NCBI GenBank assembly: GCA_001600495.1
Contig: BCKE01000071.1
Span: 53,008-117,007 of the forward strand
Source of the DNA: Pilasporangium apinafurcum
Lineage: Eukaryota > Oomycota > Peronosporomycetes > Pythiales > Pythiaceae
Length of the DNA stretch: 64,000 nt
Direction: 5' to 3'
This document shows positions 2,100-41,215 of this stretch, piece by piece; the stretch's first letter is position 1; each line of letters opens with the position of its first letter. Both the position numbers and the translations under genes were made by a program. Below the pieces are notes generated by a model, which worked only from the letters and a program-made list of their open reading frames with translations, made no database searches and was not told where the DNA came from.

Positions 2100-2336
2100 T
2101 TCAGCCAATAGAATTAATTTACTTATATGTATTCACCAATCACCGATCGCTTCTTGCATGACAAGCATCTTCTATTCGACCAATCATTATGGTTTATAGC
2201 TTTATTATCATTTCATTCCTAAATTTGATTGGATGAAAAACAAACTTAGCTCACCAATAGTTGTGAAGGCGTGATCCAATCTCATAGCTGCCAGACAAGA
2301 GCAAGCGGAAGAGGGAGAATCGTCGAGTAAAGCGAA
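2100..2336. other. Divergent intergenic spacer
   Basis: AT-rich 237 bp between the minus-strand salvage gene and the plus-strand Gag-like gene. It should hold both promoters. I see no further gene and no obvious long terminal repeat edge. Confidence 0.4.
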
Positions 2337-18421: not shown

Positions 18422-18613
18422 GCGCTTCGCAAGGTTTTGCAAATGATAAGAGAGGAAATGGACTCACATATGGCTATATTGCCCGTTAGTATTAACGAGA
18501 ACAAAGGCTAAAAATATCGACATCGCTGACTCAACAGAAATCGGCCAAGTTCGACGTTATCATTGGAGAGGTCGAACATGACCAAGGGAACGCAAATGAT
18601 GACGCCACTTTGT

Positions 18614-19160: not shown

Positions 19161-19663
19161 AGTTGGTAGCTTCGATGACTTCTTTGATCAGATACGATGC
19201 TTCCGCTCAATTTAACCGCAGCCAGCCAATATTCTTCCAAGATCATGTACATGCATACTTGGATCACATCTGGATTAAATAATTTCCTATAGCTCGTCTA
19301 CTCACGTACAGGCAAGGAAATAAACCATGTTCTTGCAGGCATTTGGTCCCTATATAGCATACTGGCAGCGAAGCCGTGTTTGACGAATCAAAGTCAGATC
19401 TCCACTGCTTCGATGCTTAGAGAGAACCAGTGCAATCTACACCAGCTGAATCCGTCCAGGTATTTTTGGAATTTGGCGGTGTGTTCTGATGATCATCGAA
19501 AAAATGGTTAATCTGAGATCAACCACTTCTAATGGGACTAGATCAAGAAGCGTTGGGTTTGTATTTTTAAGTTCACGCCTATTAGAGTTAGTTGTCAATT
19601 GAGCGAGCAACCCGACGATGCATGAGCTCGACTTCAACTTGCCAAATTTTACCTGCGTCATCG
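19161..19663. other. Spacer upstream of copy 2
   Basis: About 500 bp, probably the decayed N-terminal half of the neighbouring pseudogene plus the promoter of copy 2. I cannot read further family motifs here. The copy 2 frame is open back to 19592 from a TTG only. Confidence 0.35.
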
Positions 19664-21301
19664 ATGGAAGCAAGAACCGACGTGAATTATGAGCTGGTGG
19701 AAACGCACCCACTGCCCTCTGTGGACGTGACGAGGTCACTTCAGTCGGTGCTGTTGCCCAACTGCAGCATGAAGCGTTATATGCGATGGTATCGCAGATT
19801 GATTATCCCCATGACAATCTTGTACATGATATCCTTTGCCGTTGCTGTGGCCGTGTTGACAATCCCAGCTTCATATACGCGCTCATTGGCAGTTGTCAAG
19901 CTTGGACTTCAAGTCCCTCTCTTGATCTTCGGCACCTTTGAGCTCCGCATCGACCTTCTCAAATGTCTCGCGTCCACTTACGAGTTTTGGTTCTTTTCCA
20001 TCATGAACTTGGTCACATGCTTCGCGTTTTGTCTACATTTGGGTGATATGCGCATGATCATGGTCCTATCACAATGGCATGGCATACAATTGACGATTTG
20101 TGCCGACGCCAAAATCCAGACCAAGCAACTCGTCTTCTCCGTTGTATTAGGGACGGTATATCACATCTTCCTGTTGATCCTCGTGAGTCTCGAGCTAATC
20201 CCAAGCATACATGAGTTCACATTCTTTCACACTCGTTCATGCGCCGTGACCTCATCAGCTTTCCTGATCAATGGATTGGTGACGCTGATCGTGATGCTGG
20301 CTCGAACGGCCTATCGAAAGCGTATGACTCACCACGCAGAAGAGAACGATCCGCGGCTCATTCATTTTGTGAGTTATCGTTGCCTTGTGAGATTTCATGT
20401 ATTTCGAGCAACGGGACCGGATACACATTTGATAGAAACGGAAAAGTTCGACCTAACCGAGTCGCTGGTTCAACCATTGCGTATGGTCCGATGGAGAAGT
20501 CTAATAGCTGCAAATAATGTAATGCTCCCCTGTGTCGCACGGGTTCTCAGCTTCGACCACGGCTCCTGGAAATCAATAGTACTACAAATGACTGGGTTTC
20601 TAGGTGTCACATTGAGCATTGTTGCGTTCACGTTCCTCCATTTCTCACAAGACCAAGTTAACGGCAGTCTAGCTCCACGTTTGTTGAATCGACTCGCGTG
20701 TGTGTGTACGCTGTTCTTCCAAGCGGTTTGCTTCAGCCACTCCCAGCGCCACTTGCTCTACCATATCGTGACAATGTTCGACTTCATCTTCCACTCACTA
20801 CAACTATCATTTTGCGTCTTTTGCCTATGTGACGTGCTCTACTGGGATGAACGCTGCTGGAGTGTACTCCTTGGATGGATATGGATGCATTGCGTATTAA
20901 CCTCTGATGCACTCACACCACAAGTGCGACAGCAACTCGGACTTCATCGTCGATATGCGTTGGTTATCGTCTTCTGGTTGGTGATTACCCATGCCACACT
21001 CAGTTCACAGCTCATGTTCGCTGAAGCGTCCAATCTCCAAGACCGCGTGCTGTGGAGCTTTTCAATGTTTGGCAACAATGTGACGATTCGAACTGGGCCA
21101 GCGTATCTCAGCCGTGCGTTCACAACATTGCTGTGGTCCTTCAAAATCACTTGGCGATTGGTAACGAGTGGCGAAGATGATCTGCTGAAGATCCAGGGAC
21201 AGGTCGTCTTTTTTGGGAACCCATTGGCGCTCCGTCGTCTGACCATCTTACCGTCTGGCAGTCAGGTAGAGCCATTGTCACTTCTGCAGCCAATGCGTTA
21301 A
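19664..21301 (+). CDS. YELV-family multi-pass membrane protein, copy 2
   Basis: 545 residues from ATG 19664; an in-frame ATG at 19622 would add 14 residues, but 19664 matches the start and length of the paralogues. Motifs: YELVETHPLP, YEFWFFSIMN, HLGDMR, RTAYRKR, SYRC, FDFIF, WIWMH, DALTP and GEDDLLKIQG; about ten membrane segments. It is inverted relative to copy 1 and followed 233 bp later by copy 3 in the same direction. Bases 20574-21042 are identical to copy 1, while the N-terminal half is clearly diverged. Confidence 0.8.
   Translation: MEARTDVNYELVETHPLPSVDVTRSLQSVLLPNCSMKRYMRWYRRLIIPMTILYMISFAVAVAVLTIPASYTRSLAVVKLGLQVPLLIFGTFELRIDLLKCLASTYEFWFFSIMNLVTCFAFCLHLGDMRMIMVLSQWHGIQLTICADAKIQTKQLVFSVVLGTVYHIFLLILVSLELIPSIHEFTFFHTRSCAVTSSAFLINGLVTLIVMLARTAYRKRMTHHAEENDPRLIHFVSYRCLVRFHVFRATGPDTHLIETEKFDLTESLVQPLRMVRWRSLIAANNVMLPCVARVLSFDHGSWKSIVLQMTGFLGVTLSIVAFTFLHFSQDQVNGSLAPRLLNRLACVCTLFFQAVCFSHSQRHLLYHIVTMFDFIFHSLQLSFCVFCLCDVLYWDERCWSVLLGWIWMHCVLTSDALTPQVRQQLGLHRRYALVIVFWLVITHATLSSQLMFAEASNLQDRVLWSFSMFGNNVTIRTGPAYLSRAFTTLLWSFKITWRLVTSGEDDLLKIQGQVVFFGNPLALRRLTILPSGSQVEPLSLLQPMR
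20574..21042 (+). repeat. 469 bp perfect inverted repeat, arm 2
   Basis: Partner of 17046-17514 (reverse complement), no mismatch over 469 bases. The arms are separated by about 3.06 kb containing the family pseudogene. Boundary mismatches are at 20573 and 21043. Confidence 0.93.
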
Positions 21302-21534
21302 GCATTTAAATGTAGATTTGAGATCCCACTCATTTGATCTTCGCGATGCCAGTCATGACAGCGGTAGGCCCAACTGTCTCAGTGCTGTTCTGGGAAAAAA
21401 CTCAACGGTCAGAAACGCGTCATAACCTAGTCCTATTTTCAGAAGCCAAAAAAGCACACACCGAATACGCGCTTGATGGCTTGAAGCATTACTATTTGGC
21501 AATCATCAGCACATCGTGGCGATCCCTTAACAGC

Positions 21535-23292
21535 ATGAAAAATGAAGATGATGATGACGTTGAATACGAATTGGTCGAGGTCCATGTCCTCCCAAAAATT
21601 GATATTCGTCGGTCTCTCAAGTCGGTGCTCTTCACGAAACATCAAGCCAAGATACTTAACCGATTCCTCCGCGCCGTGATGCCTCTCTGCATTGTGATAT
21701 ATCCACTAGCTCTTCCTATTGGTGTACTGGTCATGCTCTTACCGCCATCCATCAGCAAGTGGCTGGCGTTTGCGGAACTGCTGTTTGCGTTACCATTGAG
21801 TGTACAGGGTGTATTGAGCCTTCGCGTCGATTTGCTGCGATGTTTAGTTCGCACATACGAATTCTGGTTCTTCTTGATCCTTCACGCGCTAAAATGCGTC
21901 GTCTTTGCTATGTATCTTGGGGATCTCAGGATGATCATACTTATTTCACATTGGATCGGCATCCAACTCAACAATTGCATCGACGCAAATCTCACGGCAG
22001 CGCGGCATCTCGCTAGTATTTCTCCGCTGGCGATTATTTACTACTCTTTCATATTGGTGGCTGTCAGTTTCCGACTCATCCCAGACACTCATGACTTTCT
22101 ACTCATCACTACACCTCGCCGCCATATGCTTGCTAGTGAATTCCTCGGCAACGCCTTCGCGACAATCCTAGTACTGTTACTACGAACAGCGTATCGGAAA
22201 CGATATTATCTGAAATGGACAGCGAGTCATCCCGTTGTCAACCGGTGCGTCAGCTATCGTTGTCGCGTCAAACTCGTCGCCAAAACGAAAATAACAGCAG
22301 AACAACAGAGCGACCAGCGCAGATCGGGACAACGAGGACCGATTTTTGCGTCGGAAATGAAGCTTACTGAGATATCTGAGAGCCAAACGCTTCGTCTGGT
22401 GAAACCAGGATTGTCATACAAAGATAAGCTTGTGCTGGCACCAACCGTACGTCACTGGTTCATCACGACTTCCCGCTGGAAGAGCAGGATTCTCTGCATA
22501 CTTGGTTTCATGGGATTTGTTTTCACTATTCTCAGTATGCTGTGCATTCGATATGTATCATGGAATCACCAGTCGTTGATGGGGGCGCTCTACTGCATTG
22601 CCAGTGCTTTCACGGTCTTATTCTGCCTGGTCTGCTTCTCCTGCTACCAACTTGATCTCTTTCAGCGGCTCGTGTGTTCATTTGACTTTATATTTTTATC
22701 GGTACAACTTTCGATCGCGCACGTATGTATCTGTGACTTTTTGCATTGGGACTTGAGATGCTTTGTGACGTTGTCGGTATGGATTTGGATACACTTGGCA
22801 TTGATGTTGGACGCGCTGACCCCAAAGATGAGGTACATGCTGCATCTCCGACCAATTTATGTTGCTCCAGTGCTTATTTCGTTCATCATCTCGCAATTGC
22901 TGTTTTGTTACGATCTCGCCTTTGGATTCACTGATCCTGGTTCCTCAGGTTCTTCATCGCATACTGATCACGTGCTATGGAGTATATCGCTTTTTGGTCG
23001 AGACACTGCATTTCGCTTTATCCCAATATTCTTTGGACGCGTTGGAACACTCTCACTCTGGTCGGCACGTGTGCTCTGGAAGGTGATGACTCGCTCTAGT
23101 GATGACGACTTGATCATGATCCAGGGCAACGTCGAGTTTTATGTTAACCCACACGCATTCAACATATTCATAAGACATACGCTCATGAAATGGACCACAC
23201 GACGCATTTTACCAGCAGCAGCAATAGCAGAAACGAAGAAGAAAAAAGAAGCCAGCCGCCACGCCTGGATCGACAGAGCTGCCAAGGAATAA
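21535..23292 (+). CDS. YELV-family multi-pass membrane protein, copy 3
   Basis: 585 residues from ATG 21535, the ATG that aligns with the paralogues; the frame is open to 21334 only from a TTG. The N-terminus is acidic (MKNEDDDDVEYELVEVH). Then come YEFWFF, YLGDLR, RTAYRKR, SYRC, FDFIF, WIWIH and SSDDDLIMIQG. It is longer than its relatives at the C-terminus (extra Lys/Arg-rich tail ending AWIDRAAKE) and in the central loop. It is the most diverged of the intact set and shows no conversion tract with copies 1 or 2. Confidence 0.78.
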   Translation: MKNEDDDDVEYELVEVHVLPKIDIRRSLKSVLFTKHQAKILNRFLRAVMPLCIVIYPLALPIGVLVMLLPPSISKWLAFAELLFALPLSVQGVLSLRVDLLRCLVRTYEFWFFLILHALKCVVFAMYLGDLRMIILISHWIGIQLNNCIDANLTAARHLASISPLAIIYYSFILVAVSFRLIPDTHDFLLITTPRRHMLASEFLGNAFATILVLLLRTAYRKRYYLKWTASHPVVNRCVSYRCRVKLVAKTKITAEQQSDQRRSGQRGPIFASEMKLTEISESQTLRLVKPGLSYKDKLVLAPTVRHWFITTSRWKSRILCILGFMGFVFTILSMLCIRYVSWNHQSLMGALYCIASAFTVLFCLVCFSCYQLDLFQRLVCSFDFIFLSVQLSIAHVCICDFLHWDLRCFVTLSVWIWIHLALMLDALTPKMRYMLHLRPIYVAPVLISFIISQLLFCYDLAFGFTDPGSSGSSSHTDHVLWSISLFGRDTAFRFIPIFFGRVGTLSLWSARVLWKVMTRSSDDDLIMIQGNVEFYVNPHAFNIFIRHTLMKWTTRRILPAAAIAETKKKKEASRHAWIDRAAKE

Positions 23293-28581: not shown

Positions 28582-30228
28582 TCATGAGGTCTGTGGGGTG
28601 ATACGCACCGCAGATCGAAAAAAGTTTAATTGAAAACTTTGTGTTTTCTCTGCTTTGAGCGCAGTGGGGTTGCCATAGAACTCGACCATGCCCTGAATAT
28701 TGATGAGGTCATCCTCGTTACTCATCACTAGGCGCCAGATGATACGCGCACACCACAATTGTGTCGTGAACGTGCGACTGAGGAACATCGATACGGGGCG
28801 AAGCGATACGGCATGACCAAAGACGGTGAAATACCAAAGCACACGATCTTGGAGATGGATTTCATTCACAAACATGAGCTGCATGGCCAGACCACCCTGG
28901 ACAACAAACAAATAGATCGTAATCCACAGAGCGTTGCGGCGGTGGATGCCGAGTTGATGCCGGAGCTTTGGTGTGAGAGCGTCCAAGGTCAAAATCCAGT
29001 GGATCCAGAGCCAACTGTTCAAGATACTGAAGCTTCGCAAATCCCAGTAAATCACATCGCAAAAACAGATCGCTGAAAGCGTAAACTGCAGCGACAGAAA
29101 CACGAAATCAAATGACGTGACAATGTGATACAGCAGTATTCGATGCAAATGTGCAAATGAAACACCAATATAAACCAGCGAGCACACCGTTGAGACCACC
29201 TGCAACGTCACCAACATGGAATAAGTCACCCATTCCTCGCTCACTTTGTAATGGATGCACGAGAACGCAGCCACGCTTGGAATAAATCCAAGCCAAGCAA
29301 TCAACTGGAAGGTCCATCGATACCATGTTGTCCAATTGGAGGTGAAATAAAGTACCAATGGTATTAGGACATTCGTTACAGCTATAGGTTTCGTCCATTT
29401 AATCATGCGGAGCTGTTGAATGTTTGCGTTATCACTCTGCTTTGTCTGATTCGCATTCTCTACTTTCACTGCGGATGGTCCCTGATCTTGAATCAGCTGG
29501 AACTTGGTACGACAGCGATAGCTCATTAACGTGGCAACGCGCGCGTCATTATTCTTGCGCTTATACATCGCGTGTTTGCGGTATGCCGTGCGAGTTATGA
29601 GCACCAAGATGATCGAGAACGCGTTCATCAAGAAATCTTCTGAAGTCAACGAACGTGCATTGGTCTTGAGCAGATTGAAGCTGTGCGTTTCTGGGATAAG
29701 ATCAAGACCAAATATCACCATTAAGTACACAAAAAAGGATGCCGCAAACGCTGAAATCCCTGCGAAATCCCGGTTCTCCAACCTGGCATCACCGCAAATA
29801 TTTAGCTGGACAGACCACCAGGTGGTGAAGATGGATACAACGCGCATATCACTCAATTGAAGACAAAATACGATGCACGTTGCAAGATTAACGGTCGAAA
29901 AGAACCAGAACTCGTAGGCTGAGCAGAGACATTTGAGTAAATCGCGTCGATAGTTGAGCGACGACAGGATCAAGATTGGCAACTGCATCACCACTTTTAC
30001 GACAGCCAATGGTCCGCCATATTTTATCGGTAAGAGCAGTATAGCGGCTCCTAATGGATAAGAGATGATATAGGCGACTAACGTAGGAATATACGCAACT
30101 TGGCTAGTGTGTTGGAATCTTAACATCCCACGTCTGGTCAAGATGCCACTGTCGAGACCTCTCGTAATATCAATTGACGGCAAAGTATGCGCTGCCACTA
30201 GCTCATACTGCTCATTTATCGATAACAT
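28582..30228 (-). CDS. YELV-family multi-pass membrane protein, copy 4
   Basis: 548 residues from ATG 30228 (MLSINEQYELVAAHTLPS); in-frame ATGs at 30252 and 30276 would add 8 or 16 residues, but 30228 gives the family's usual start and length. Motifs: YEFWFF, LSDMR, RTAYRK, SYRC, FDFVF, WLWIH, DALTP, NEDDLINIQG. About ten membrane segments. It is convergent with the SDR gene (92 bp between stops). A broken tandem copy lies directly upstream. Confidence 0.8.
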   Translation of the reverse strand: MLSINEQYELVAAHTLPSIDITRGLDSGILTRRGMLRFQHTSQVAYIPTLVAYIISYPLGAAILLLPIKYGGPLAVVKVVMQLPILILSSLNYRRDLLKCLCSAYEFWFFSTVNLATCIVFCLQLSDMRVVSIFTTWWSVQLNICGDARLENRDFAGISAFAASFFVYLMVIFGLDLIPETHSFNLLKTNARSLTSEDFLMNAFSIILVLITRTAYRKHAMYKRKNNDARVATLMSYRCRTKFQLIQDQGPSAVKVENANQTKQSDNANIQQLRMIKWTKPIAVTNVLIPLVLYFTSNWTTWYRWTFQLIAWLGFIPSVAAFSCIHYKVSEEWVTYSMLVTLQVVSTVCSLVYIGVSFAHLHRILLYHIVTSFDFVFLSLQFTLSAICFCDVIYWDLRSFSILNSWLWIHWILTLDALTPKLRHQLGIHRRNALWITIYLFVVQGGLAMQLMFVNEIHLQDRVLWYFTVFGHAVSLRPVSMFLSRTFTTQLWCARIIWRLVMSNEDDLINIQGMVEFYGNPTALKAEKTQSFQLNFFRSAVRITPQTS

Positions 30229-30420
30229 CCTTGCATGCCTTGATCGCCGCATTTCGACATGATCACATATATACATACATCTTCAGACTATATTAAGAAC
30301 GCAAGCTATAAATACTGAGGTGGCTGCTTCTTCCAAAATGAAAGCAACAATCATTTGATTGGATTCAAACTATACTCACTTCAGGTGTTTATTGATGAAC
30401 TCGTTCGAACGAGATTCGTC

Positions 30421-31424
30421 TCAAAGACACTGGGATTCACTCGTCGTAACTGATTGTTCGTCTTTGATGACTTGACGTAATCCATTCGAATTATCGTAAA
30501 ACTTAATGCTGTCCTGGATGATGATCAAAATGTGTTTTGCGCTGATCGTGAACCACCAAGTGATGCGCAAACACTCCAACTGCGTCGTGAACACATGAGT
30601 GAGACGCGTGGGCACTGATTGGAATTGCACTTCTTGTCTAAACACGGGCAAACTCCAGAGGACTCGGTCTCGAAGACTTAGTGGATAGGAGAACACGAGC
30701 TGCAAAGAGAGTGCAGTTCACATTGAAGCAAAGCAGATACCAGAAGAGCGTGCCACTAAAGCAAACCCCCATAAAGATGAACTGTATCAATAAAATCATG
30801 ACATGTAAAAACGTAACGGTATGCAGCGACAAGATACGATGGAGGTGCACAACGAAAACACCGAGCTAGAGCAACGTGTAGACCATTGAGACGACTTATA
30901 TGACCAACGCCGTCACATTACGAATGAGTTTTCTGTCCATGGCGAAATGGAGATACCGCATGCGAATCCGATGTCGTGGAACCGGTGGAGTAACATCTGT
31001 TTTGACTGTTGGTGCTGGTCAGAGAAAGATTTGAGAGCGCTAGGAAATACGATGCTTCTAACATTGATAGATTTCTTTCACGGAGCAAGACGTAATTGTT
31101 GCCGCATGCAGACTAGATTTTGATCATAACTACACTTTCGACAGTTGATCCACTTTTGTTGTTATTGCTGTTGTTGTGCCGACGTTGCTACTGTGGTTTG
31201 TATTGAAGTTTGGCGCAGCAACGATAGCTTATAAAGTAAATGATACACGGGTTATTAATGTTGATCTTGTAGCGCATAAGTTTGTGATATTCTATGCGTA
31301 CGAGCAGCACCAACATGGCGTTTACACAAGACAGTGTGTGCACTTCCACGAGTTCATACTGCAGACCATGACCAGTCATGTCTGCGGCATTCGGCTGTAT
31401 TTTAGATGAAGAAAGAGACCACAC
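30421..31424 (-). pseudogene. YELV-family membrane protein pseudogene with internal deletion
   Basis: The C-terminal third is readable (LRDRVLWSLPVFRQ ... VFTTQLECLRITWWF ... FYDNSNGLRQ), but the DDL tail has become KHILIIIQ. A second frame (30638-30850) carries HLHRILSLHTVTFLH. At the other end, QYELVEVHTL is followed almost at once by LLVRIEYHKL and FISYRCCAK, so several hundred bases encoding the first membrane block are deleted. Closest to neighbouring copy 4. Confidence 0.8.
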
Positions 31425-31986
31425 GCGCGGGATAGCGGGTAAAATGCGAAAAAAGACATTTGGGCTACAATATCTATTAAAGCATTATGGCTAGAAACTA
31501 TTCACCAAGAATACTGTCACGAGAGTTTGGGTGAGTGTTACATGTTTCTTACACACAATGAAGTGGCAAGGCAGTCATATCTCCGACGACTAATCATTCG
31601 GACTTTGATTGAATGCATCTTAAGCAATGCATGGTTAGTGTTAAGATTTTAGTCTTCACTGCCTTGAAGTAGTATGTTGTTCTGTTTGTTATGATCAACC
31701 TTACATACATGAGTTGGGATCCTTACATATGTATACTAGTACTATACTACAAAAGGCGCATCCCACTCTCGTTTCGACAGTACGAACGCGCTACCTCGGT
31801 TTATGAATGTGGGTGCATGGAGTGACGTAGATCCAGCAGGAAACACGTGATAGGTGTTGCACAAATTTTCTTTGTGAAGCAATGTACAAGAGTGTTGGTT
31901 GGAATTTATTTCTTGACCTACACTCGCTCTTACCGCACACACCAACATGGTTGTCATCTTGTGCTTGCAGTGTTCTATGGCAAAAC
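31425..31986. other. Spacer before the small-protein array
   Basis: About 560 bp, no gene supported. AT-rich, with the small-gene promoter at its right edge. Confidence 0.4.
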
Positions 31987-32004
31987 TCATTCTCCAATCT
32001 TTCC
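31987..32004 (+). promoter_or_regulatory. Inr/FPR promoter of small gene 1
   Basis: TCATTCTCCAATCTTTCC, about 45-60 nt before ATG 32047. The first ten bases match the promoter of small gene 7. Confidence 0.6.
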
Positions 32005-32046
32005 TTTCGTATTAAAACCAGTTCAAGAACCCAAGCACATACAGCA

Positions 32047-32331
32047 ATGATCAGCAACACCACAAACTTCTATAAGAATCTGTACTTCCCGCAAGCCAAG
32101 TCTCTCATCGAGAACGCTAACAAGCAACAAGAAGAGATGAACATCAGTAATGCCACTGTCAAAGCTGCTACATCTTTACGAGCTATCAATAAAAAACAAA
32201 TCTCCTTATCAGTTGATGCAAATAAACGTGACGAGCTCCAGAGGCGTCAGACAGAAAAGAAGGATTCGAGCTAGAAACCCTTGGCGTTTGCTCTGCAACC
32301 ATACTATCGAGTGCAAGGCAGACTACGTTAG
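32047..32331 (+). pseudogene. Small-protein array copy 1, broken by a Trp-to-stop change
   Basis: The frame opens with MISNTTNFYKNLYFPQAKSL and stops at TAG 32272-32274, exactly where copy 2 has Trp (KKDSRWK versus KKDSS-stop-K). Beyond the stop the same frame continues with the family C-terminus (LAFALQPYY, then GRL) to a second TAG at 32329-32331. A full-length product would be about 94 codons. It is either a recent nonsense pseudogene or a 75-residue truncated product. Confidence 0.65.
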
Positions 32332-33240
32332 ATCAACATGCCAGAAATAGAGCGCTAAAGCGTTTTTATTTATCAAGTCTATGTTAACTACAGCAGAGAA
32401 CAACATGAGCGACCAAATCTGTGTAGTATGATGCCTTGAACACAAAGGTGCAGTTGGATGTAGAGAATAGATCGTTCTTGACACCTTATTCAATCATACA
32501 ATCATAATATCAATCAATGGTTGTCTAAAAAGAAACTAAGAAATGGCTTGGGTGTTTTCTTCACAACGTTTACAGTCAAATTACTGTTAACTGTCGCTAT
32601 AAGCGCAATACAGTCGCAAAAAATATCTCGTGACACGACTCAATGAATACGAGAAGGCAACCTGAGCGCATGAAGGCACAATTGCGAGCAGATAAAGCGA
32701 AATATACAGTAAGTTACCAAGAACCCAATGGATTGTCTGCAACAATGAAGACATTTTGCCGTATTTCCTTTTCTCTATAGGGCGGAACATGGGTTTGTAC
32801 AACGTTGGACGCCTCTGTAAGTGGATATTGGTGGCTGAGAGACGAAGAACCAGCCCATACTTCCCCAACTTCGCTGACTGCACAAAACTGCAATAGAAAT
32901 CTCTGAATATCATACCACCATTCTTAACTGCAACGACCTACACTCAACTGACCCTTGATGCTCTCTACCACTTAGCAGCCAGCTACTATGCACCACCCAC
33001 AACACCTTCTTGAAGCTTTCTTTCTGGTCAAAAATCATTGCGTCAGACCAACAGTGATTGGTAGAAGGTGTGGTAGCCTCAGAGTGTTGGTTGAAGACAG
33101 CTTTGAAAGACTATCTGCAATGATTGGCTACAGATACGTTAAAGTACTTTCTCACCAACATTCTCGGTTCACATGCATTCCTACAGCTGCGACTGATCAT
33201 TTGGGATGTCGGTGTCGAAATGGTAAATTTTTGTGTCTGG
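32332..33240. other. Array spacer 1-2
   Basis: About 900 bp, no gene supported. It contains ACCAACATTC followed by CACATGCATTCCTA (33153-33184), a motif pair seen again near other array members. Confidence 0.4.
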
Positions 33241-33258
33241 TTCATTGCTCAATTTGCG
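33241..33258 (+). promoter_or_regulatory. Inr/FPR promoter of small gene 2
   Basis: TTCATTGCTCAATTTGCG, 40-57 nt before ATG 33298. Confidence 0.6.
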
Positions 33259-33297
33259 TTCAAAGCCCCATATCCACACAAAACACAACGGCAACGA

Positions 33298-33566
33298 TGA
33301 ACAATTCGGTAGCTCACTTCTGCAGAAACCAACACTTTCAACAAGCGACGCTCATCGTCAAGAAAGCCAACAAGCAGGACGAAGAGAGAATGACGAGAGT
33401 TACCAAGCCAGTCCCAGTTACACAAGTGGTTGATTGCAAGAAAACTCATCTCACTAGTGCAATTGAAAGCAAGGAGTGCCTGTCCTATAAGAATGAGAAG
33501 AAGGACTCGCGATGGAAACGGTTAGCATTCGCTCTTCAGCCTTACTTCAAGGGCCCCAGAAAATAA
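33298..33566 (+). CDS. Small basic protein, array copy 2
   Basis: 89 residues. Family pattern: a short polar start (MNNSVAHF), an amphipathic QA-x-L-x-VKKA helix (FQQATLIVKKANKQ), a variable polar middle, then a conserved end WKRLAFALQPYFKG. Strongly basic; no signal peptide, membrane segment or Cys pattern. The promoter block is 40 nt upstream. Function unknown; I do not recognise the family. Confidence 0.65.
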
Positions 33567-35241
33567 AATTTCGTTGAAGAACGAGTGCAGAAGACGATAA
33601 TTATTGTGCTGGTTCCTCGAATAGAAGAGATGACTGCACAGCATGCAAATACCAATACGTTTAATTCCGCCTCCTACGGCGTAGCATGTTTTTATACCGA
33701 TTAAATACATATGTCCAATCAGTTGAATGATTCTTCCTAGTCGATTGTGGTCAAATCGATAATTTTATTTTTGTACACATAGTACAGCATTACCAGTGCT
33801 CCAGTAGAAACCAAGATTTAAGCTTGATATTAGTCATGTACATCTTTGCAGCGATGGTCGTTAACACAATGGGGACAGATGTCTTAGTGGCACTTGTAGC
33901 ATCTGGATGAACTGCAAAGTCTATTGGCAGTACCAATTATTTTCACACCGATCTACCAAGAGCGTGTGCTTAGTAGATTGGTCCACGAATATTTGCGTGT
34001 TAAAGTGCTGGCCCAATCAATAACAGTTTGAATACATCCAAGCCATCAATGCCTAGTTTTTGTACGGAAAGGTGTCCACTTCAGAAAGCATTGTACCGGT
34101 AAACCATCATTCTCCTCAAAGTTGCACATGCATTCCTGTGCATCAGCAACCTAGCACCCACTAGGAAATTTACAACAAACTTGCGTACTCTATCGGCATC
34201 CACTTTGCTTACGATCATAAAAGAGCGCATGCGACACCCTCATTGTCTTCTTGTGGCGTGCGCAGAGCTGTACATTCGCTACCCGTTCGTCAACCCACAA
34301 ACGTATACGAGTTTCTCACCAAAAGAGCAACGAGGGACTAGTCCCGCATAGCATGTGTCCCAAGAACAAAAAATAATTGCACGATGCGATCTAACGAAAA
34401 GAACGCTTATTCCCAATGATACCACGGTTCACACCCATTGGTGACCAACATTCCCATGATTTTGGCATCGTTTGCGCTTACGTATTATCCTCATCACAAA
34501 ACAAAGGTTGATGCTGTATCTTCTCATGCACAGCAATTCTATCATTTGTAGTTACATGAGATATGCGAACAGCATCACGTATGTGGGACCAACATGGACC
34601 ACATTAGCAAAGGAGCGGGAAGCTAAAGATGACTGATGGTGCTAGTATGGACATGCCGGTCTCTGACACCTACCAGCAAGCAAAACTTGGCAGCCACGAT
34701 GTATCTTTCGACAGTGAGTAGCTATAACATCTACCAACACTCTGTGGCATTCCACATGCACTCCAACCCCAGTATTTAAAAATTCTTGTAGTCAACAGAT
34801 GATGTACTCACATACGTGTGTCGCTATGATCCATTGGCTTGCCTTTGTGGTATCATGGTAAGAAAATTCAGCAAGAAAGACACCCCGAAGGCGTTCTAGT
34901 AAGATAGAGATGGAATCAAAGAAGGCAGCCACACGAAATATATTCTTTCATGTGAATGTTCCTGTGATTGGGAACGCTAGCAGGCCACGATCCCAACTAT
35001 ATAGGTACATCTAGAGTCACTGGTTGTTCGTATGACACTTTTATGGCCCGTCGTTGTTATTCGTTGTTTTTACATTTATCCTAGCAAACATTAGAAAGGA
35101 GAAAAAAGGATGGATGCTTTCATCAGCGTGCAAAAACACTTTGTGATAACGAACGCCATGTTGTACCATCATTCACGACCTGCATTCATCTACTCCATCT
35201 AGCGAGCTCACATAATGGGACTGTGGGGCATAACGAGCTTC
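33567..35241. other. Array spacer 2-3, the longest
   Basis: About 1.7 kb with no intact gene. A 30-codon frame at ~34628-34720 contains DTYQQAKLG, which could be the remnant of a lost array member. CACATGCATTCCT recurs at 34125-34137. Otherwise nothing recognised. Confidence 0.4.
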
Positions 35242-35259
35242 TCCATTCGCTCACAATCG
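35242..35259 (+). promoter_or_regulatory. Possible Inr promoter of small gene 3
   Basis: TCCATTCGCTCACAATCG, 55-72 nt before ATG 35314; a weaker fit to the initiator than its neighbours. Confidence 0.4.
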
Positions 35260-35313
35260 AATAATCCTCGCCCTTGAAAATAGCATACCACGCACGCTTT
35301 TCTTGAAGCAACC

Positions 35314-35586
35314 ATGAACAACGCTGGCAGCTTTTACACGAATCTACACGCAAACCAGGCGCGTGAGTATGTGAAGAAGCATAACCGCCAACAGCAACAA
35401 CATGCTCAAGACAAGTCAAGTTTGCTGAAGCCACTGGCGTCTGCTGTCAGTGCCGAAAGGAAGCCGTCACCTGCGGATGCTGCGCATCAACAAAGTGAAC
35501 ACAACAGCAGTGGTAAGGTGAATCAGCTTGCGTACACTTTGCGTCCTCCAAGCAAGTTGTTGAGCCCATCAGATTGTTCAAGTTAA
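35314..35586 (+). CDS. Small basic protein, array copy 3
   Basis: 90 residues. The start MNNAGSFYTNLHANQA matches copies 1 and 2; the helix reads REYVKKHNRQQQQ. The middle is Ser/Ala/Gln-rich. The usual LAFALQP end appears only as LAYTLRP, and the C-terminus is different (SDCSS). The most diverged recognisable member together with copy 7. Confidence 0.6.
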   Translation: MNNAGSFYTNLHANQAREYVKKHNRQQQQHAQDKSSLLKPLASAVSAERKPSPADAAHQQSEHNSSGKVNQLAYTLRPPSKLLSPSDCSS

Positions 35587-36881
35587 TCGCCGCAATGAAA
35601 TTTGGCGTGGAGAGATAAAACTCTCTAGAATGGAATGAAGCAGAATGTGAAATCATTGAAGCTTAAATGCAGTTATCAATTATATCTGCATGTACCTGCA
35701 CTTATACGTAGCTCTTAACCCATCAATGGTGATCGCAGAGACAAAGGATGCGTGAAATGTAATGTCGATAGTAGACAATATATTGGCAATCCCTACATAA
35801 TAACTGAATAAAAACGATCTTCTTGTGCCCAAAAGCAGCATATTCTCATCTCGATGCGTAATATTGACGAAGAAACTATCCATTTTAATACAAGAGAAGG
35901 CACGAAAAAGGCTCGCTAGCATTGAATTGTTAACATATTAAGCATCCGAACATCTATGACTCGGTTAATCCATCTAGCAATGAAATATAATTCACATCAT
36001 TCTTTGAGTAAGCGGTTGTACCGCATTATGTTGACGATAGAATGGCTACATACTGCTGACAACCCGTGATTCAATAAGTCCAGCAGGGTTCGTATATTCG
36101 TTCCAGCCGTGGGGATTTGTGGTACATGCGCGAAGTGATAGAACATCAATCAACTAGATGTGCATAGCATTGATGACAATGGGCTCAGAAGTACCCAGTG
36201 AAGCTGTGTTGTCGAGTATGCGGTGATACAGACGGTCAAGCTGTGAAGAAAACTCCATAATAAGAAAAGTTGTCCCATTTATCACCGTGAATCCATTTGA
36301 AACCAACATTCGTGGTTGCACATACACTCCTGCACCATGAAACAGTAAAGAATCCATTTTACAATATGTGATATGAACGCAGACTGTTGAAGTGGAAACT
36401 GTTGCTCATCTTGGTGTAATTTACAGTACTAACAAAAATATGCATGTGGCTGAAGAGAAGCGTTTTTCTCTTCTTTCCCTTCCGACAATTATATCCATCG
36501 CAGAATCCACTTGAACCTCTATATTCGGTGTTACATCATATTATCATCTCTTTTTCTTTGGCTTTTGCGTGAAGTTGCGAGGCTCACCAGCGTGTCTGCG
36601 GTAAATATATGGAACATGTCCATCCTTTGTAAGCTCTTGTGGTCCAAGTGATAATGTTAGCACATTGTGGTACCGGCACCATCGCTCGCTTCAGAGAGCA
36701 AAGCATCAATTGTCAGAATGTAGGTCGTAATGGTAACGAATGAACGTCTCGGCAAATTACCGTCATTGATACAGGGAGCATTCTTTGCACGCAATAATGC
36801 CCGACAATAAAGCGCATCGAGTTCTTCACAATTCAAGTTACTCGATCACAAGCAACACCAGCAATATCAAGGTTAACCACG
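35587..36881. other. Array spacer 3-4
   Basis: About 1.3 kb, no gene supported. ACCAACATTC with CACATACACTCCTGC (36302-36333) repeats the motif pair seen upstream of copy 2. CACAATTCAA at 36827-36836 is shared with the copy 6 leader. Confidence 0.4.
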
Positions 36882-37136
36882 ATGAACCAATCCACCAATC
36901 TGCACTTCCAGCAAGCGACTTTGTACGTCAAGAGAGCCAAGACGCAGTACGAACATGCCCAGTCCAGGCTCGATAAATCAACGTGTCTAGTTGACTCAAA
37001 GATACAATACGAGCACAATGACAAAAAGCAAAGTGGCGAGTTGAGGGATCAGCAGCAAGGTGGCGAATGGAAGACATTGGCGCTCAGTTTGCAGCCACAT
37101 TTTCGAACCTCCGGTCCTAGTGGTCGATTGAGTTAA
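36882..37136 (+). CDS. Small basic protein, array copy 4
   Basis: 84 residues: MNQSTNLHFQQATLYVKRAK, then a charged Gln/Asp-rich middle, then WKTLALSLQPHFR and SGPSGRLS at the end. It keeps the Trp that is a stop in copy 1. CLVDSK in the middle is shared with copy 6 (CLIDSK). Confidence 0.65.
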   Translation: MNQSTNLHFQQATLYVKRAKTQYEHAQSRLDKSTCLVDSKIQYEHNDKKQSGELRDQQQGGEWKTLALSLQPHFRTSGPSGRLS

Positions 37137-37390
37137 GATATAGCAGCATTTGGATAAACTGGTTAGGAAATAACAACAGAACTTATGGAAGCACGAAACG
37201 ACAAATAAATCAATGAGATTGCATAGGAAACTTATGTTCGTTCTTCCTTGATTACGCGCGTCAGACTCCAAGCTACACACATCATCGTTACTATAGATGT
37301 AAATTCCATGGACATATGGAATCGCTGGTAAAACATCATTGCGACCACCATTTTTCCTACACTCATCCCAAATAGTTCCCATCATATACA

Positions 37391-37408
37391 CACATCTCGA
37401 GATGTGTC
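37391..37408. repeat. 18 bp perfect palindrome
   Basis: ACACATCTCGAGATGTGT reads the same on both strands. Its half-site recurs in the hairpin 90 bp downstream. Confidence 0.85.
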
Positions 37409-37495
37409 GGCGGTAAGCGTGCTAACTGTGTTTGTCACATGCCATGTACCCTGTCGGTCATTTTGTGCTGACTGTTCATTAGATCGTGGCAAAAC

Positions 37496-37547
37496 AGATG
37501 TGTGTATGCATTGGGCGGGGGCAAAGAAAGAACACATACACACATCT
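37496..37547. repeat. Hairpin with 13 bp stem and 26 nt loop
   Basis: AGATGTGTGTATG at 37496-37508 is the exact reverse complement of CATACACACATCT at 37535-37547. Confidence 0.85.
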
Positions 37548-37816
37548 TTGAACTTTAAGGGCCATCTACACACATCCATATCTGCTGAAATGGCGCAATC
37601 ATTTATGTATCTTAACCTGCTAAATTATTTGATGTTATATTAAAATATGGTGATACCATATGCATTTACATACATAAAGTATTATTAAATACTTGTTTTG
37701 TAAAAATGCATGTCAACTATTGCAAACAGCAAGACCAGATCTGCCGAGATACGATTCATTCTAAAACTGCGTTTTATCAATGGACAACGTAGTCCCGAGT
37801 GGAGCGACATTGGTGA

Positions 37817-37836
37817 TCATTTCCCAATTTTCCCCG
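37817..37836 (+). promoter_or_regulatory. Inr/FPR promoter of small gene 5
   Basis: TCATTTCCCAATTTTCCCCG, 23-42 nt before ATG 37859; close match to the copy 7 promoter (TCATTCTCCAATTTTCCTCG). Confidence 0.65.
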
Positions 37837-37858
37837 TTCAAGATCAAATCACAGAGCC

Positions 37859-38119
37859 ATGAAAAATGATGTGCGACTTCTGCATTTGCAACAAGCAGTT
37901 CTCACAGCAAAGAAGGCAATTCAGCAGCAAGCCAACCAGACAAGCGATTTTGTAGACAAGAACGTCTCCGCAAGTACTAAGTCGATCTACTACAAAAAAA
38001 TCATGGCTAAGCAAGAAGAACAAGCAATCGGTGACCAAGAATTGGATGCAGCAAAGCGGAAACAACTTGTCCGTAGCTTACAACCGCATTTTAAAGGGCA
38101 TGTTGGTCGATTGTGTTAA
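37859..38119 (+). CDS. Small basic protein, array copy 5
   Basis: 86 residues. MKNDVRLLHLQQAVLTAKKA gives the family helix, the middle is Ala/Gln/Lys-rich, and the end is LVRSLQPHFKG then VGRLC. No Trp before the C-terminal block (RKQLVRSLQP). Confidence 0.62.
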   Translation: MKNDVRLLHLQQAVLTAKKAIQQQANQTSDFVDKNVSASTKSIYYKKIMAKQEEQAIGDQELDAAKRKQLVRSLQPHFKGHVGRLC

Positions 38120-38938
38120 TTCACTTATAATTTGTTTCGTAAAGTTTATTGAGTTGTTAAAGTGCAAGATATTTCCCCCAAATAGCAATGCGAAGTTAAG
38201 ACACAAATGAAATACAGTTCTCTGCGCTGTGCTCATATTGAATGATGATACACATCTTTACGAGTCAAACGATGATAGCTATTTCAAGCAAGATATTACC
38301 ATTGTAAACATGTTTCCATAATTTTTCTCTTTTTCATAATTTTGCGGTGCGATCTTTACCACAACATAGATAGCGGGATTATCAAAGAGGTAAAGGACAA
38401 ACCACAGGATTTTGTGGTTTTGTACCCAATGACTATTTCTGTGAAGTGATCGACCCAAGAAAGTAGTACCTACACTCTTGCTCATACACATGCATTCCTA
38501 CTGTGATGGGCACTGAAGAAGCAAGTCAACGCCAACGAAATCCACTTGGTGCGTCGGTGTTACTTTCGGCGGTGCGCTTTCACATGCTCTTTCTGTGCTT
38601 CGAACTGTTTATCGCAATTTGGGTTCACTACCGAGACAAGCTACGTCTAAACTCAGACTCAAGATGCCAATCGTTCTTTTCTAGTTCTCATGGTGTCATT
38701 GCGCGATGACAGAACGTTGGTGCGATGGCTGTGTTGGGGATGTTGATGGTCAAACTCCTTACTAGAATGCATGCTTGCATGCGGAAATGTTACGAATGAT
38801 TGTCACATTGAAATACCATCACTGGGGCGCGCATTTCCGATGACAAACATCCGCGAGTACAGGCACAGGATAACTAGTGTCACAATTCAAATTACGTGCT
38901 TTCAAGCAACGCGGAACAACGATACCACTTAACCAACG
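38120..38938. other. Array spacer 5-6
   Basis: About 820 bp, no gene supported. ACACATGCATTCCTACTG at 38487-38504 repeats the motif upstream of copy 2. The leader of copy 6 has TCACAATTCAA around 38880. Confidence 0.4.
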
Positions 38939-39190
38939 ATGGACCATTCGACCAGTCATCACTTCCAGCAAGCGGCTCTGTACATCAAGAATGCGAGCAA
39001 ACGAGATCTGACTCCATCCAGTCAAACCAAGCCAGTATGTCTCATTGACTCCAAGCAATTGTTTATACATAATAACAGTAAGCGAACAAACAAACAACGT
39101 GATCACATGAGTGATGTTCAGCAAAAGACCTTGGCGTTCGCTTTGCAGACACCCTTTCGAGCTCCTGGTCCAGCTGGTCGCTTGGGTTGA
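38939..39190 (+). CDS. Small basic protein, array copy 6
   Basis: 83 residues: MDHSTSHHFQQAALYIKNAS, middle with CLIDSK, end KTLAFALQTPFR and GPAGRLG. The end is closest to copy 4 (GPSGRLS), suggesting these two share a recent ancestor. Confidence 0.65.
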   Translation: MDHSTSHHFQQAALYIKNASKRDLTPSSQTKPVCLIDSKQLFIHNNSKRTNKQRDHMSDVQQKTLAFALQTPFRAPGPAGRLG

Positions 39191-39768
39191 TACAAATTTC
39201 AACTTCACAATCATTCGAGAACGCTTCAGCTAGATGATCAGTAGTGAATTCGGTACGAATATATGCATTCTAGTTCTTCTAATTGACGGCTGATATCCAC
39301 TCCGTCCATCTTTAATAATTACACTCATCAACTTTTCTCCACCATGGTCACACACTTAAGTACAATTTGGTTGATAACGAAGTTCTCTGATGCCTCGCTG
39401 GCTGTGCTTATCATGCATGAAATGGATGACTGTGTACTGTCTATAGTGACATCGAATCGTGTGATGAGTGGAGTAGATGGATGCAAAGTAGACAGAACAG
39501 TCGCACATACACACTCATACAACATGGCCTTGAAGTGGCAATACACTCATCCGATCTGTGTCTAAACCTATTAATACCAAAACACGAGTATTATATAAGC
39601 GAAACGCCATAATAAATTTTTTGAAAGCACATCCAAATATGAGACAACTATTCATTTAACCTTGTTTTGTGAATTCCATCGAATGATGGTCATGTCGGAA
39701 AATGTTGGCAGCGAACCGACATTCTTTTTGACTCATAAAATGCTGGCTTATCGCACAGACATTTGTTT
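39191..39768. other. Array spacer 6-7
   Basis: About 580 bp, no gene supported. Confidence 0.4.
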
Positions 39769-39788
39769 TCATTCTCCAATTTTCCTCG
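39769..39788 (+). promoter_or_regulatory. Inr/FPR promoter of small gene 7
   Basis: TCATTCTCCAATTTTCCTCG, 45-64 nt before ATG 39833. Confidence 0.65.
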
Positions 39789-39832
39789 TCCACACCACTA
39801 CAACTTGAAACCAAGCGATTCTAAGAAGCACC

Positions 39833-40099
39833 ATGAACTGCGGCGGTAACTTTCTGCACGAAAAACAAGCAATTCTCCTCGTGAAAAAGACGACCAAGGA
39901 GCAGTACCAGGCTCAACATACCAAGGAACAGTGTCAGCCTCAACATGCCAAGGTCAGCATCGTAAAGTCTCTCGCAGCATCAGCACCGGCTCGTTTGAAA
40001 CTCGGTGGAACAAAATATCCACTCTCAAGCAACAAACTCGAACAACCGTTGACCAAAGAAAACATCATAACGGCACTTCATAATCGTCATGTTGTTTGA
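39833..40099 (+). CDS. Small basic protein, array copy 7
   Basis: 88 residues. Start MNCGGNFLHEKQAILLVKKT fits the family. An internal near-repeat follows (QYQAQHTKEQCQPQHAK), and the C-terminus lacks the LAFALQP/GRL block (ends LHNRHVV). Membership rests on the N-terminal helix, position and promoter. Confidence 0.55.
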   Translation: MNCGGNFLHEKQAILLVKKTTKEQYQAQHTKEQCQPQHAKVSIVKSLAASAPARLKLGGTKYPLSSNKLEQPLTKENIITALHNRHVV

Positions 40100-40169
40100 A
40101 AGCTTTAGTATTTACCATCAACAACTCCGTAATACCAATGTTTTTTTTATTATTATCCTTGATTTATGC

Positions 40170-40310
40170 ACTTTATGAGATCATATGAGATACGAAAGTA
40201 CCTCAGAGAGGACCTCCTTTATTTGCTTGAGTCCGAATTGAGTAGCAAAAGCTAGCTAAGACTAGACAACAGCAAAGTAGGTATATCCGACACTTGGACT
40301 CGATGAGTCC
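40170..40310 (-). repeat. Fanzor-tail repeat, copy A
   Basis: The minus-strand sequence running from the last codons of Fanzor relic B past its TAG (40252-40254), through GCTTTTGCTACTC and CCTCTCTGAGGTAC to CTCATATGAT. Copies B and C are at 25.2-25.5 kb. In OMEGA systems the guide RNA is made from the nuclease gene's 3' end; this segment has that position. Confidence 0.55.
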
Positions 40311-40510
40311 AGAAAAGTAGATACTCATTCTTGAGAATGATGTTTCTAGCAGCGCTGACATTTCTATCAAGGACGAACTTGTAGTGAGGGCACTGAAAAA
40401 CTTTCTGGCACTTCATTTTGCGGTTGATTATCCCACATTTGAGAACAGGTCTTTATTGTATAGTTTTCCTCACGCTTGTATGTGTGCGGTTTGCCTTTCT
40501 TTCGCACCGA
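40252..40510 (-). pseudogene. Fanzor/TnpB-like nuclease C-terminus, relic B (frameshifted)
   Basis: Reading the minus strand: NYTIKTCSQ, then a one-base shift, then CGIINRKMKCQKVFQCPHY and FVLDRNVSAARNI. This is the classic TnpB/Fanzor2 end: CxxC, CPxx(C) zinc finger, then the RuvC-III Asp in DRxxxAARNI. Defects: one extra base between TCSQ and CG, and the last zinc Cys changed to Tyr (CPHY). Only the last ~70 codons are present; no RuvC-I or II seen. Confidence 0.75.
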
Positions 40511-40727
40511 TACTAGCGTGCCACGCTTTTCGGACAGTCACTTTGACTTAGTCATCACCTGGATAGAGGTCAAGAAAAGTTGTATAATTCTAATGGAGTT
40601 CCTTGACTAGGTTACTCCAACTCGCTTCGCGAGTTGTGCCTACCAACTGGCTACACCTAGAATATGGGGTGTACCGTGTGAGCAGGTTCAAGTCCGAAGA
40701 CCTCGAGCTCACGCTTTTTTTGCGCTT

Positions 40728-41215
40728 CTACGACTCACTTGATTCTCGTTGCAAGTACTCTGGTCTTGCTCGATTGTTGAAAAGTTCTGTCGTCACGCGT
40801 ATAATATTCAGTGAAGCGTTCACGTCGCGGTCCCAAAACGTCTTGCATTCACTGGNTTCACAGTGCAAAACGGATCGAGATTCAATTGTGCCATCGGGAA
40901 CGCCGTTGACCATTTTCGGGAAGACTACCTTCGAAAGTTCAGCGTGACAGTGGAAACATCGCTTGCTTGTACGAAACTCGTCAACGGAACGAACGATAGC
41001 GCGCTTTGCCAGTTCCTTCTTGAGCGTTTTGACGCCATGGTGGGGAATTGTCGAATGACATACCAGTGAAAAAATTTCCCATACTGGTTGCAAAGAGACA
41101 CTTACAGTTGGTTATACTGAAAATAAGATTTCGAGGTAAGTCGTTTGTCAGGTTTTCTAGTCAGTATGACAGATTTGGCCAGGCGGACAAAATGGAATCT
41201 CATACGTTTTCCGCA
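40728..41215 (-). pseudogene. Fanzor-like nuclease C-terminus, relic A
   Basis: Minus strand. HHGVKTLKKELAKRA, then VDEFRTSKRCFHCH (zinc CxxC preceded by the DEFRTS motif), then LHC ... CKTFWDRDVNASLNI with the RuvC-III Asp; stop at 40728. Upstream (to ~41215) a broken frame reads RLTSKSYFQYNQL followed by TAA, consistent with the preceding helical part. It is of a different subtype from relic B (long insert between the Cys pairs, WDRDVNA). One base at 40856 is N. Confidence 0.75.
40856..40856. other. Ambiguous base (N)
   Basis: A single undetermined base inside Fanzor relic A, within a zinc-finger codon neighbourhood. It does not by itself break the frame. Confidence 0.95.

What the first reader, a model, noticed from the sequence alone, without database searches (positions are those of the whole stretch)
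31987..40099. Tandem array of seven small basic proteins, unrecognised family
Seven plus-strand frames of 75-90 codons, spaced 0.9-2.0 kb, share an N-terminal pattern (MN..., then QA-x-L-x-VKKA) and mostly a C-terminal pattern (LAFALQP-x-F, then GRL near the end) with a freely varying middle. At least five have an oomycete Inr/FPR core promoter 25-65 nt upstream, so they look like separate transcription units. No signal peptide, membrane span or known motif. Conserved ends, a variable centre, tandem birth and one freshly broken copy suggest rapid turnover under some selection.
Basis: partly seen in the sequence, partly recalled or inferred. Interest (0 to 1): 0.82.

Follow-up and report, generated by a model that had tools for sequence, protein, structure and literature searches.

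The report
Seven-copy orphan small basic gene array
Seven neighbouring copies of a short, positively charged protein gene, kept by natural selection but matching no family we could search, form what looks like an unnamed family of small cell-internal proteins in an apparent water mould.

Summary
Seven plus-strand frames (75-90 codons, pI 9.5-10.2) are homologous and account for all seven ATG frames of 74 or more codons on that strand of 31400-40200. Left out in turn, six beat all 2000 shuffles against a profile of the rest; c7 is matched by one. They are coding: synonymous exceed replacement changes in 7 of 7 pairs tested with DNA-level alignment, and are near saturation. So the array is old and under purifying selection. 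Four copies (c1, c2, c5, c7) have a strong INR+FPR-like promoter 28-50 nt before the ATG; c3, c4 and c6 do not exceed background. Copy 1 has a stop before a still recognisable C-terminal block; c7 lacks that block. In the 36.5 Mb genome a consensus query found six of the seven copies and nothing else. Pfam, PDB, GTDB and IMG/VR searches found no relative; eukaryote proteomes could not be searched. AlphaFold2 gives a confident N-terminal helix and no global fold. Best guess: a lineage-restricted family of intracellular, largely disordered adaptor-like proteins.

The parts
31985..32000 (+). INR+FPR-like core promoter of copy 1, 46 nt before the ATG
   Evidence: 13 of 15 consensus positions; none of 20000 local + strand background stretches reaches 13; not matched by YCAYTYYNNMWTTTNC at up to one mismatch
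32047..32274 (+). copy 1 (c1), 75 aa plus TAG
   Evidence: leave-one-out profile above 2000 of 2000 shuffles
32275..32331 (+). C-terminal block of copy 1, in frame after the stop (recognisable, described only)
   Evidence: C-block profile built without c1, E 2.4e-4; matches that contain one TAG
33240..33255 (+). INR+FPR-like core promoter of copy 2, 41 nt before the ATG
   Evidence: 13 of 15; one mismatch to YCAYTYYNNMWTTTNC at 33242
33297..33566 (+). copy 2 (c2), 89 aa
35314..35586 (+). copy 3 (c3), 90 aa, degraded C-terminal block
36882..37136 (+). copy 4 (c4), 84 aa
   Evidence: structure model
37815..37830 (+). INR+FPR core promoter of copy 5, 28 nt before the ATG
   Evidence: 14 of 15; exact YCAYTYYNNMWTTTNC at 37817
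37859..38119 (+). copy 5 (c5), 86 aa
38939..39190 (+). copy 6 (c6), 83 aa, closest to copy 4
39767..39782 (+). INR+FPR core promoter of copy 7, 50 nt before the ATG
   Evidence: 13 of 15; exact YCAYTYYNNMWTTTNC at 39769
39833..40099 (+). copy 7 (c7), 88 aa, N-terminal block only, most weakly attached member
   Evidence: 1 of 2000 shuffles scores as high; N-block profile, which includes c7, E 2.8e-10
33170..33181 (+). candidate shared upstream element CACATGCATTCC, 127 nt before c2; further exact or near sites at 34125, 34753, 36319, 38487
   Evidence: three exact sites in the window, all in the array on +; weak statistics; suggestive only

Best explanation
A lineage-restricted tandem family of small, basic, intracellular proteins. 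Shown: homology of the copies, protein-level constraint, a conserved N-terminal block and C-terminal block with a spacer of variable length, and oomycete-type core promoters at four copies. Inferred: each protein is mostly disordered alone and works as an adaptor or inhibitor, with its N-terminal helix (H-F-Q-Q-A-x-L-x-V-K-K-A) and its C-terminal element (K-x-L-A-x-x-L-Q-P-x-F ... G-R-L) docking on one or two partner proteins and folding on binding. Copies are separately transcribed, probably at particular life stages, which would make the array a set of partly redundant or stage-divided versions of one regulator. The stop in copy 1 and the missing C-terminal block in copy 7 would be ordinary birth-and-death decay. 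'Lineage-restricted' is itself inferred, since eukaryote genomes could not be searched.
For: Homology. pS above pN in 7 of 7 pairs tested (of 21 possible; none with c7), bootstrap P(pN>=pS) 0-0.0055, with DNA-guided alignment. At E up to 0.01, DNA similarity between copies covers only coding ends (for c1 including the stretch after its stop) plus 56-59 nt upstream in c4/c6. INR+FPR at c1, c2, c5, c7; [quoted passage not shown] AlphaFold2 on c4: helices 3-32 and 51-70, mean pLDDT 88 at residues 11-20, 50-52 at 31-60, pTM 0.26. No membrane span.
Against: No RNA, partner or localisation data. The model has only 7 aligned sequences, so low confidence may reflect lack of depth, not disorder. Three of seven promoters are not above background. 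In 7 of 21 pairs another frame, mostly -2, scored higher than the coding frame in protein comparison. In protein-guided comparison of 21 pairs pS equals pN for c1-c4, and pN exceeds pS in the N-block of c1-c4 and in the middle of c1-c2, c2-c7 and c5-c7. Amphipathicity of the N-block exceeds shuffles at the 5% level in only 2 of 7 copies (c1, c3).
Confidence: 0.4

Rival explanations
1. Nuclear or nucleic-acid-binding small basic proteins (chromatin or RNA associated) rather than protein adaptors.
For: pI 9.46-10.22, K+R 11-19 against D+E 5-8 in 75-90 residues, 6-11 glutamines.
Against: No Pfam DNA- or RNA-binding match above a cut-off; the one weak match, to a tRNA-synthetase anticodon-binding family (FDX-ACB), is E 0.079 for c5 only. 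The conserved C-terminal element is largely hydrophobic and aromatic; most basic residues of the middle are not conserved in position across the seven.
Confidence: 0.2
2. Mitochondrial (or other organelle) small proteins, the N-terminal helix being a targeting sequence.
For: N-terminal predicted helix; no acidic residue in the first 27 residues of c2 and the first 23 of c4 (sequences).
Against: First acidic residue at 22, 18, 4, 2 and 10 in c1, c3, c5, c6 and c7 (sequences); mostly lysine rather than arginine; a targeting sequence is usually poorly conserved (recalled), here it is the most conserved part. No targeting predictor was run.
Confidence: 0.13
3. Non-classically secreted effector-like or antimicrobial small proteins.
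For: Small, cationic, tandem, no relatives found; INR+FPR promoters are also linked to functions related to plant infection (PMC3599244, passage).
Against: No hydrophobic signal-peptide core, 0-3 cysteines per copy (counted), purifying selection over whole frames.
Confidence: 0.12
4. A dying family: former genes with residual open frames and no present function.
For: Stop in c1, C-block not found in c7 and degraded in c3, promoters at c3, c4, c6 no better than background.
Against: Six of seven copies are open end to end, although the seven pairs aligned (none with c7) share only 45-62% of bases; pN below pS in 7 of 7 of these pairs, including those with c1 and c3.
Confidence: 0.1

Closest known systems
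Tandem, stage-expressed small gene families of oomycetes (e.g. the Phytophthora NIF cluster; recalled, NifC and NifS are mentioned in passages of PMC3597505)
   Same: Tandem copies with their own promoters (recalled for NIF), plausible stage regulation
   Different: NIF proteins are recognisable phosphatase-type regulators (recalled); this family has no Pfam match above a cut-off
Small secreted cysteine-rich oomycete families such as SCR74 (recalled; papers seen only as a listing and abstract starts)
   Same: Small, multi-copy, apparently lineage-restricted
   Different: Here no signal-peptide-like core, 0-3 cysteines, purifying selection
MIT-domain helix 1 (recalled resemblance of Q-A-x-L-x-V-K-K-A)
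   Same: Helix pattern only, from recall
   Different: No Pfam MIT match listed at E up to 10 (HMMER's filters drop most matches above about 0.1), no compact fold in the model

Membership tests
Oomycete INR+FPR core promoter (PMC3599244) | YCAYTYY, 2 nt, MWTTTNC on the sense strand within about 125 nt of the start codon | tested here: met
   Exact at c5 and c7, one mismatch at c2. c1 is not matched by this pattern at one mismatch but has 13 of 15 positions of the older 16-nt consensus (recalled). Not met at c3, c4, c6.
Any curated Pfam-A family | Match above the gathering score | tested here: not met
   Seven copies scanned and six copies plus the consensus rescanned at E up to 10: only FDX-ACB, E 0.079, 13.8 bits against a cut-off of 31.1, for c5
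Known structure | Profile match to PDB sequences | tested here: not met
   7-copy profile: 3 matches, best E 0.14; 4-copy profile: 0 at E up to 10
Small cysteine-rich secreted effector families | Signal peptide and many cysteines | tested here: not met
   Highest 19-residue hydropathy 0.76; 0-3 cysteines (counted); no signal-peptide predictor run
MIT domain | Three-helix MIT profile | tested here: not met
   No MIT match listed; two helices, no compact fold, in a low-confidence model
Lineage-restricted orphan gene family | No homologue in other eukaryotes | not testable with these tools
   Only prokaryote, viral, plasmid and PDB collections and the own genome were searched

The most novel reading that the evidence does not exclude
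An undescribed oomycete-specific class of intrinsically disordered two-motif regulators, kept as a single tandem array whose members divide life stages between them and dock on a conserved partner through the QAxLxVKKA helix and the LAxxLQPxF...GRL tail.
Probability: 0.3. Interest if true: 0.55.

Novelty: new member of a known kind. Interest (0 to 1): 0.36.

Why it matters
Small intracellular proteins of under 100 residues are easily missed in annotation. A constrained, seven-copy family with two clear motifs and recognisable promoters gives a concrete set of targets for expression and partner tests. It would not by itself overturn anything: orphan tandem families are common (general knowledge).

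Tried and rejected
Paralogues elsewhere: each of the seven copies was searched as a single protein in the own genome. Every match below E 0.05 is in the array. The weak ones outside (C17 E 0.07, C5 0.15, C11 0.42, C60 2.8, C26 2.9) are not taken as family: the first four loci were scored with two family profiles, best E 0.23; C26 was not checked. These single-protein searches are not sensitive: c3 and c7 find only themselves. The consensus query found six of seven (not c7) and nothing else. A first DNA pattern search for the start of the frames gave 18 matches, none in the array, and was not used.

Extra dead copies in the spacers: N-block and C-block profiles over six frames of 31000-41000 gave, below E 1, only the known copies and the block after the c1 stop. 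Shared upstream element CACATGCATTCC: three exact sites, all in the array, but the count at up to 2 mismatches in the window is at chance (11 found, 8.9 expected), and the best 14-mer and 18-mer are only slightly above 15 shuffles (18-mer 79 against at most 76); the best 22-mer is the c7 core promoter (90 against at most 87). Parts of the element were not found in the main text of PMC3597505; its motif table is a supplement that I did not see. Duplication of a c4-c5 pair into c6-c7: considered; for it, c4 and c6 are the closest pair and a 35-nt stretch upstream of c5 and c7 is 80% alike, but that stretch is the core promoter, there is no c5-c7 match at E up to 0.01 in DNA, and none of the four inner branches of the protein tree is well supported. 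Fold search: not run, the model (pLDDT 62.3, pTM 0.26) is too weak. Peptide motif strings in the paper library: 0 papers. General paper searches on oomycete small tandem or orphan families: 1 and 5 papers listed, none taken further. Species: not identified; two PF00174 loci, one in an 864-aa frame that I read as nitrate reductase from recall, argue against Albugo and downy mildews (their loss of nitrate reductase is recalled); a '136 contigs' paper search listed two papers that did not help.

Full report
What is there. Seven frames on the + strand between 32047 and 40099 (c1-c7) encode related proteins of 75-90 residues. They account for all seven ATG-started frames of at least 74 codons on that strand between 31400 and 40200 (for c1 and c2 the longest ATG frames start further upstream, at 31882 and 32988; the homologous part starts at 32047 and 33297); the other strand has five such frames, none of them among the matches to the family profile. 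BLASTP among the seven gives E below 0.001 for 10 of 21 pairs: 3e-22 for c4-c6, 3e-13 for c2-c4, 4e-11 for c2-c6, 1.6e-8 for c4-c5, 2e-7 for c1-c2, 5e-7 for c3-c4, 1e-4 for c3-c7 among them; c1-c7, c5-c6 and c6-c7 are not listed at E up to 1 (database of seven). A profile of the other six scores each left-out copy above all 2000 shuffles for c1-c6; for c7 one shuffle scores as high, and in the window's six frames c7 (E 0.038) barely exceeds the best unrelated frame (E 0.049). c7 therefore belongs mainly by its N-terminal block, strand, size, promoter and place.

Anatomy. The N-terminal block (H-F-Q-Q-A-x-L-x-V-K-K-A) is in all seven; only M1 and the Q-A pair are invariant. The C-terminal block (K-x-L-A-x-x-L-Q-P-x-F ... 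G-R-L) is in c2 (without GRL), c4, c5, c6, degraded in c3, not found in c7, and in c1 found only after a TAG. The middle varies in length. A weaker conserved patch, V-D-S-K-like, lies in the middle of c2, c4, c5, c6. The proteins are basic (pI 9.46-10.22) and hydrophilic, with no membrane span.

Are they genes? Codons were compared after DNA-level alignment, which does not favour the protein reading, in seven of the 21 pairs: pS 0.59-1.06 against pN 0.33-0.44, bootstrap P(pN>=pS) between 0 and 0.0055. Protein-guided comparison of all 21 pairs gives pS above pN over the whole frame in 20 and equality in one (c1-c4, 0.53 and 0.53); by region pN exceeds pS in the N-block of c1-c4 (0.42 against 0.39) and in the middle of c1-c2, c2-c7 and c5-c7. 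In protein comparison frame by frame, the coding frame scores highest in 14 of 21 pairs; in the other seven another frame, mostly -2, is higher: c1 with c4, c5, c6 and c7, c4-c5, c4-c7 and c5-c7. Nucleotide similarity between copies, at E up to 0.01, is confined to the ends of the frames (for c1 running past its stop) and, for c4/c6, 56-59 nt upstream. Taken together this is purifying selection on proteins that diverged long ago.

Promoters. Against the recalled 16-nt oomycete consensus, c1, c2 and c7 match 13 and c5 14 of 15 positions, ending 46, 41, 50 and 28 nt before the ATG; none of 20000 local + strand background stretches reached 13. c3, c4 and c6 score 9, 9 and 10, no better than background. 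Across the whole window 0.2% of 5000 + strand stretches reached 14 and 0.12% of 5000 on the other strand reached 13. With the published definitions INR YCAYTYY and FPR MWTTTNC two bases apart (PMC3599244, passages), the window's only two exact matches are the sites of c5 and c7, and c2 has one mismatch; c1 is not matched at one mismatch. The total of ten matches at up to one mismatch is not above chance (8 of 100 shuffles reach ten), so the position is the evidence, not the count. That paper ties INR+FPR to developmentally regulated, more strongly expressed genes and to functions related to plant infection in Phytophthora infestans.

Relatives. In the whole 36.5 Mb genome a consensus query finds c1-c6 and nothing else, c7 being missed. 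Pfam gives no match above a cut-off. The PDB sequence search gives nothing below E 0.14. GTDB species contigs (44 pattern hits, 0 confirmed), IMG/VR (54 pattern hits, 0 confirmed) and plasmids with c4 alone give nothing. None of these is a collection of eukaryote genomes, so 'no homologues anywhere' is not shown. A paper search for six motif strings gave 0 papers; that does not show that the family is unpublished.

Structure. AlphaFold2 on c4 with seven aligned sequences: mean pLDDT 62.3, pTM 0.26; helix 3-32 with mean pLDDT 88 at residues 11-20; helix 51-70; block means of 50-52 at residues 31-60, 65 at 61-70, 59 at 71-80 and 47 at the end. This fits a conserved helix and a flexible remainder but, with so shallow an alignment, does not prove disorder.

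How it most likely works. Shown: coding, constrained, tandem, with a recognisable promoter of its own in four cases, two conserved elements. Inferred: the two elements are docking surfaces for partner proteins, with a spacer free in sequence; the copies are stage-divided or redundant versions. Probability (my judgement): real protein-coding family about 0.95; adaptor-like, partner-dependent mechanism about 0.4. Rivals are nucleic-acid binding, organelle targeting, unconventional export, and decay.

Verdict.

Noticed in passing
window 40728-41093 (-): Relic with a Cas12f1-like TNB domain (TnpB/Fanzor type; Pfam E 1e-9) at the 3' flank of the array. The genome search with that family scored 150 of 852 candidates, all 150 above the cut-off, some in frames of 500-740 codons or more: the genome is rich in such elements.
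   Followed up: partly
window 40252-40416 (-): By eye, a second short fragment with a similar cysteine-pair and D-R-N-V-S-A-A-R-N-I pattern next to the first relic (frame); no family search was run on it.
   Followed up: no
window 16778-18463 (-), 19592-21301 (+), 21322-23292 (+), 28582-30282 (-), degraded 30421-31424 (-): A repeated family of about 560-660-residue proteins, by eye multi-span membrane proteins, without a Pfam match at E 0.01 in the three copies scanned, and by eye a decayed copy directly before the array.
   Followed up: partly
window 33170, 34125, 34753, 36319, 38487 (+): Repeated CACATGCATTCC-like element in the spacers of the array; two of the five sites lie in the c2-c3 gap.
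   Followed up: partly
window 2331-4052 (+): Frame of 573 codons that looks by eye like a retrotransposon gag with a zinc knuckle.
   Followed up: no
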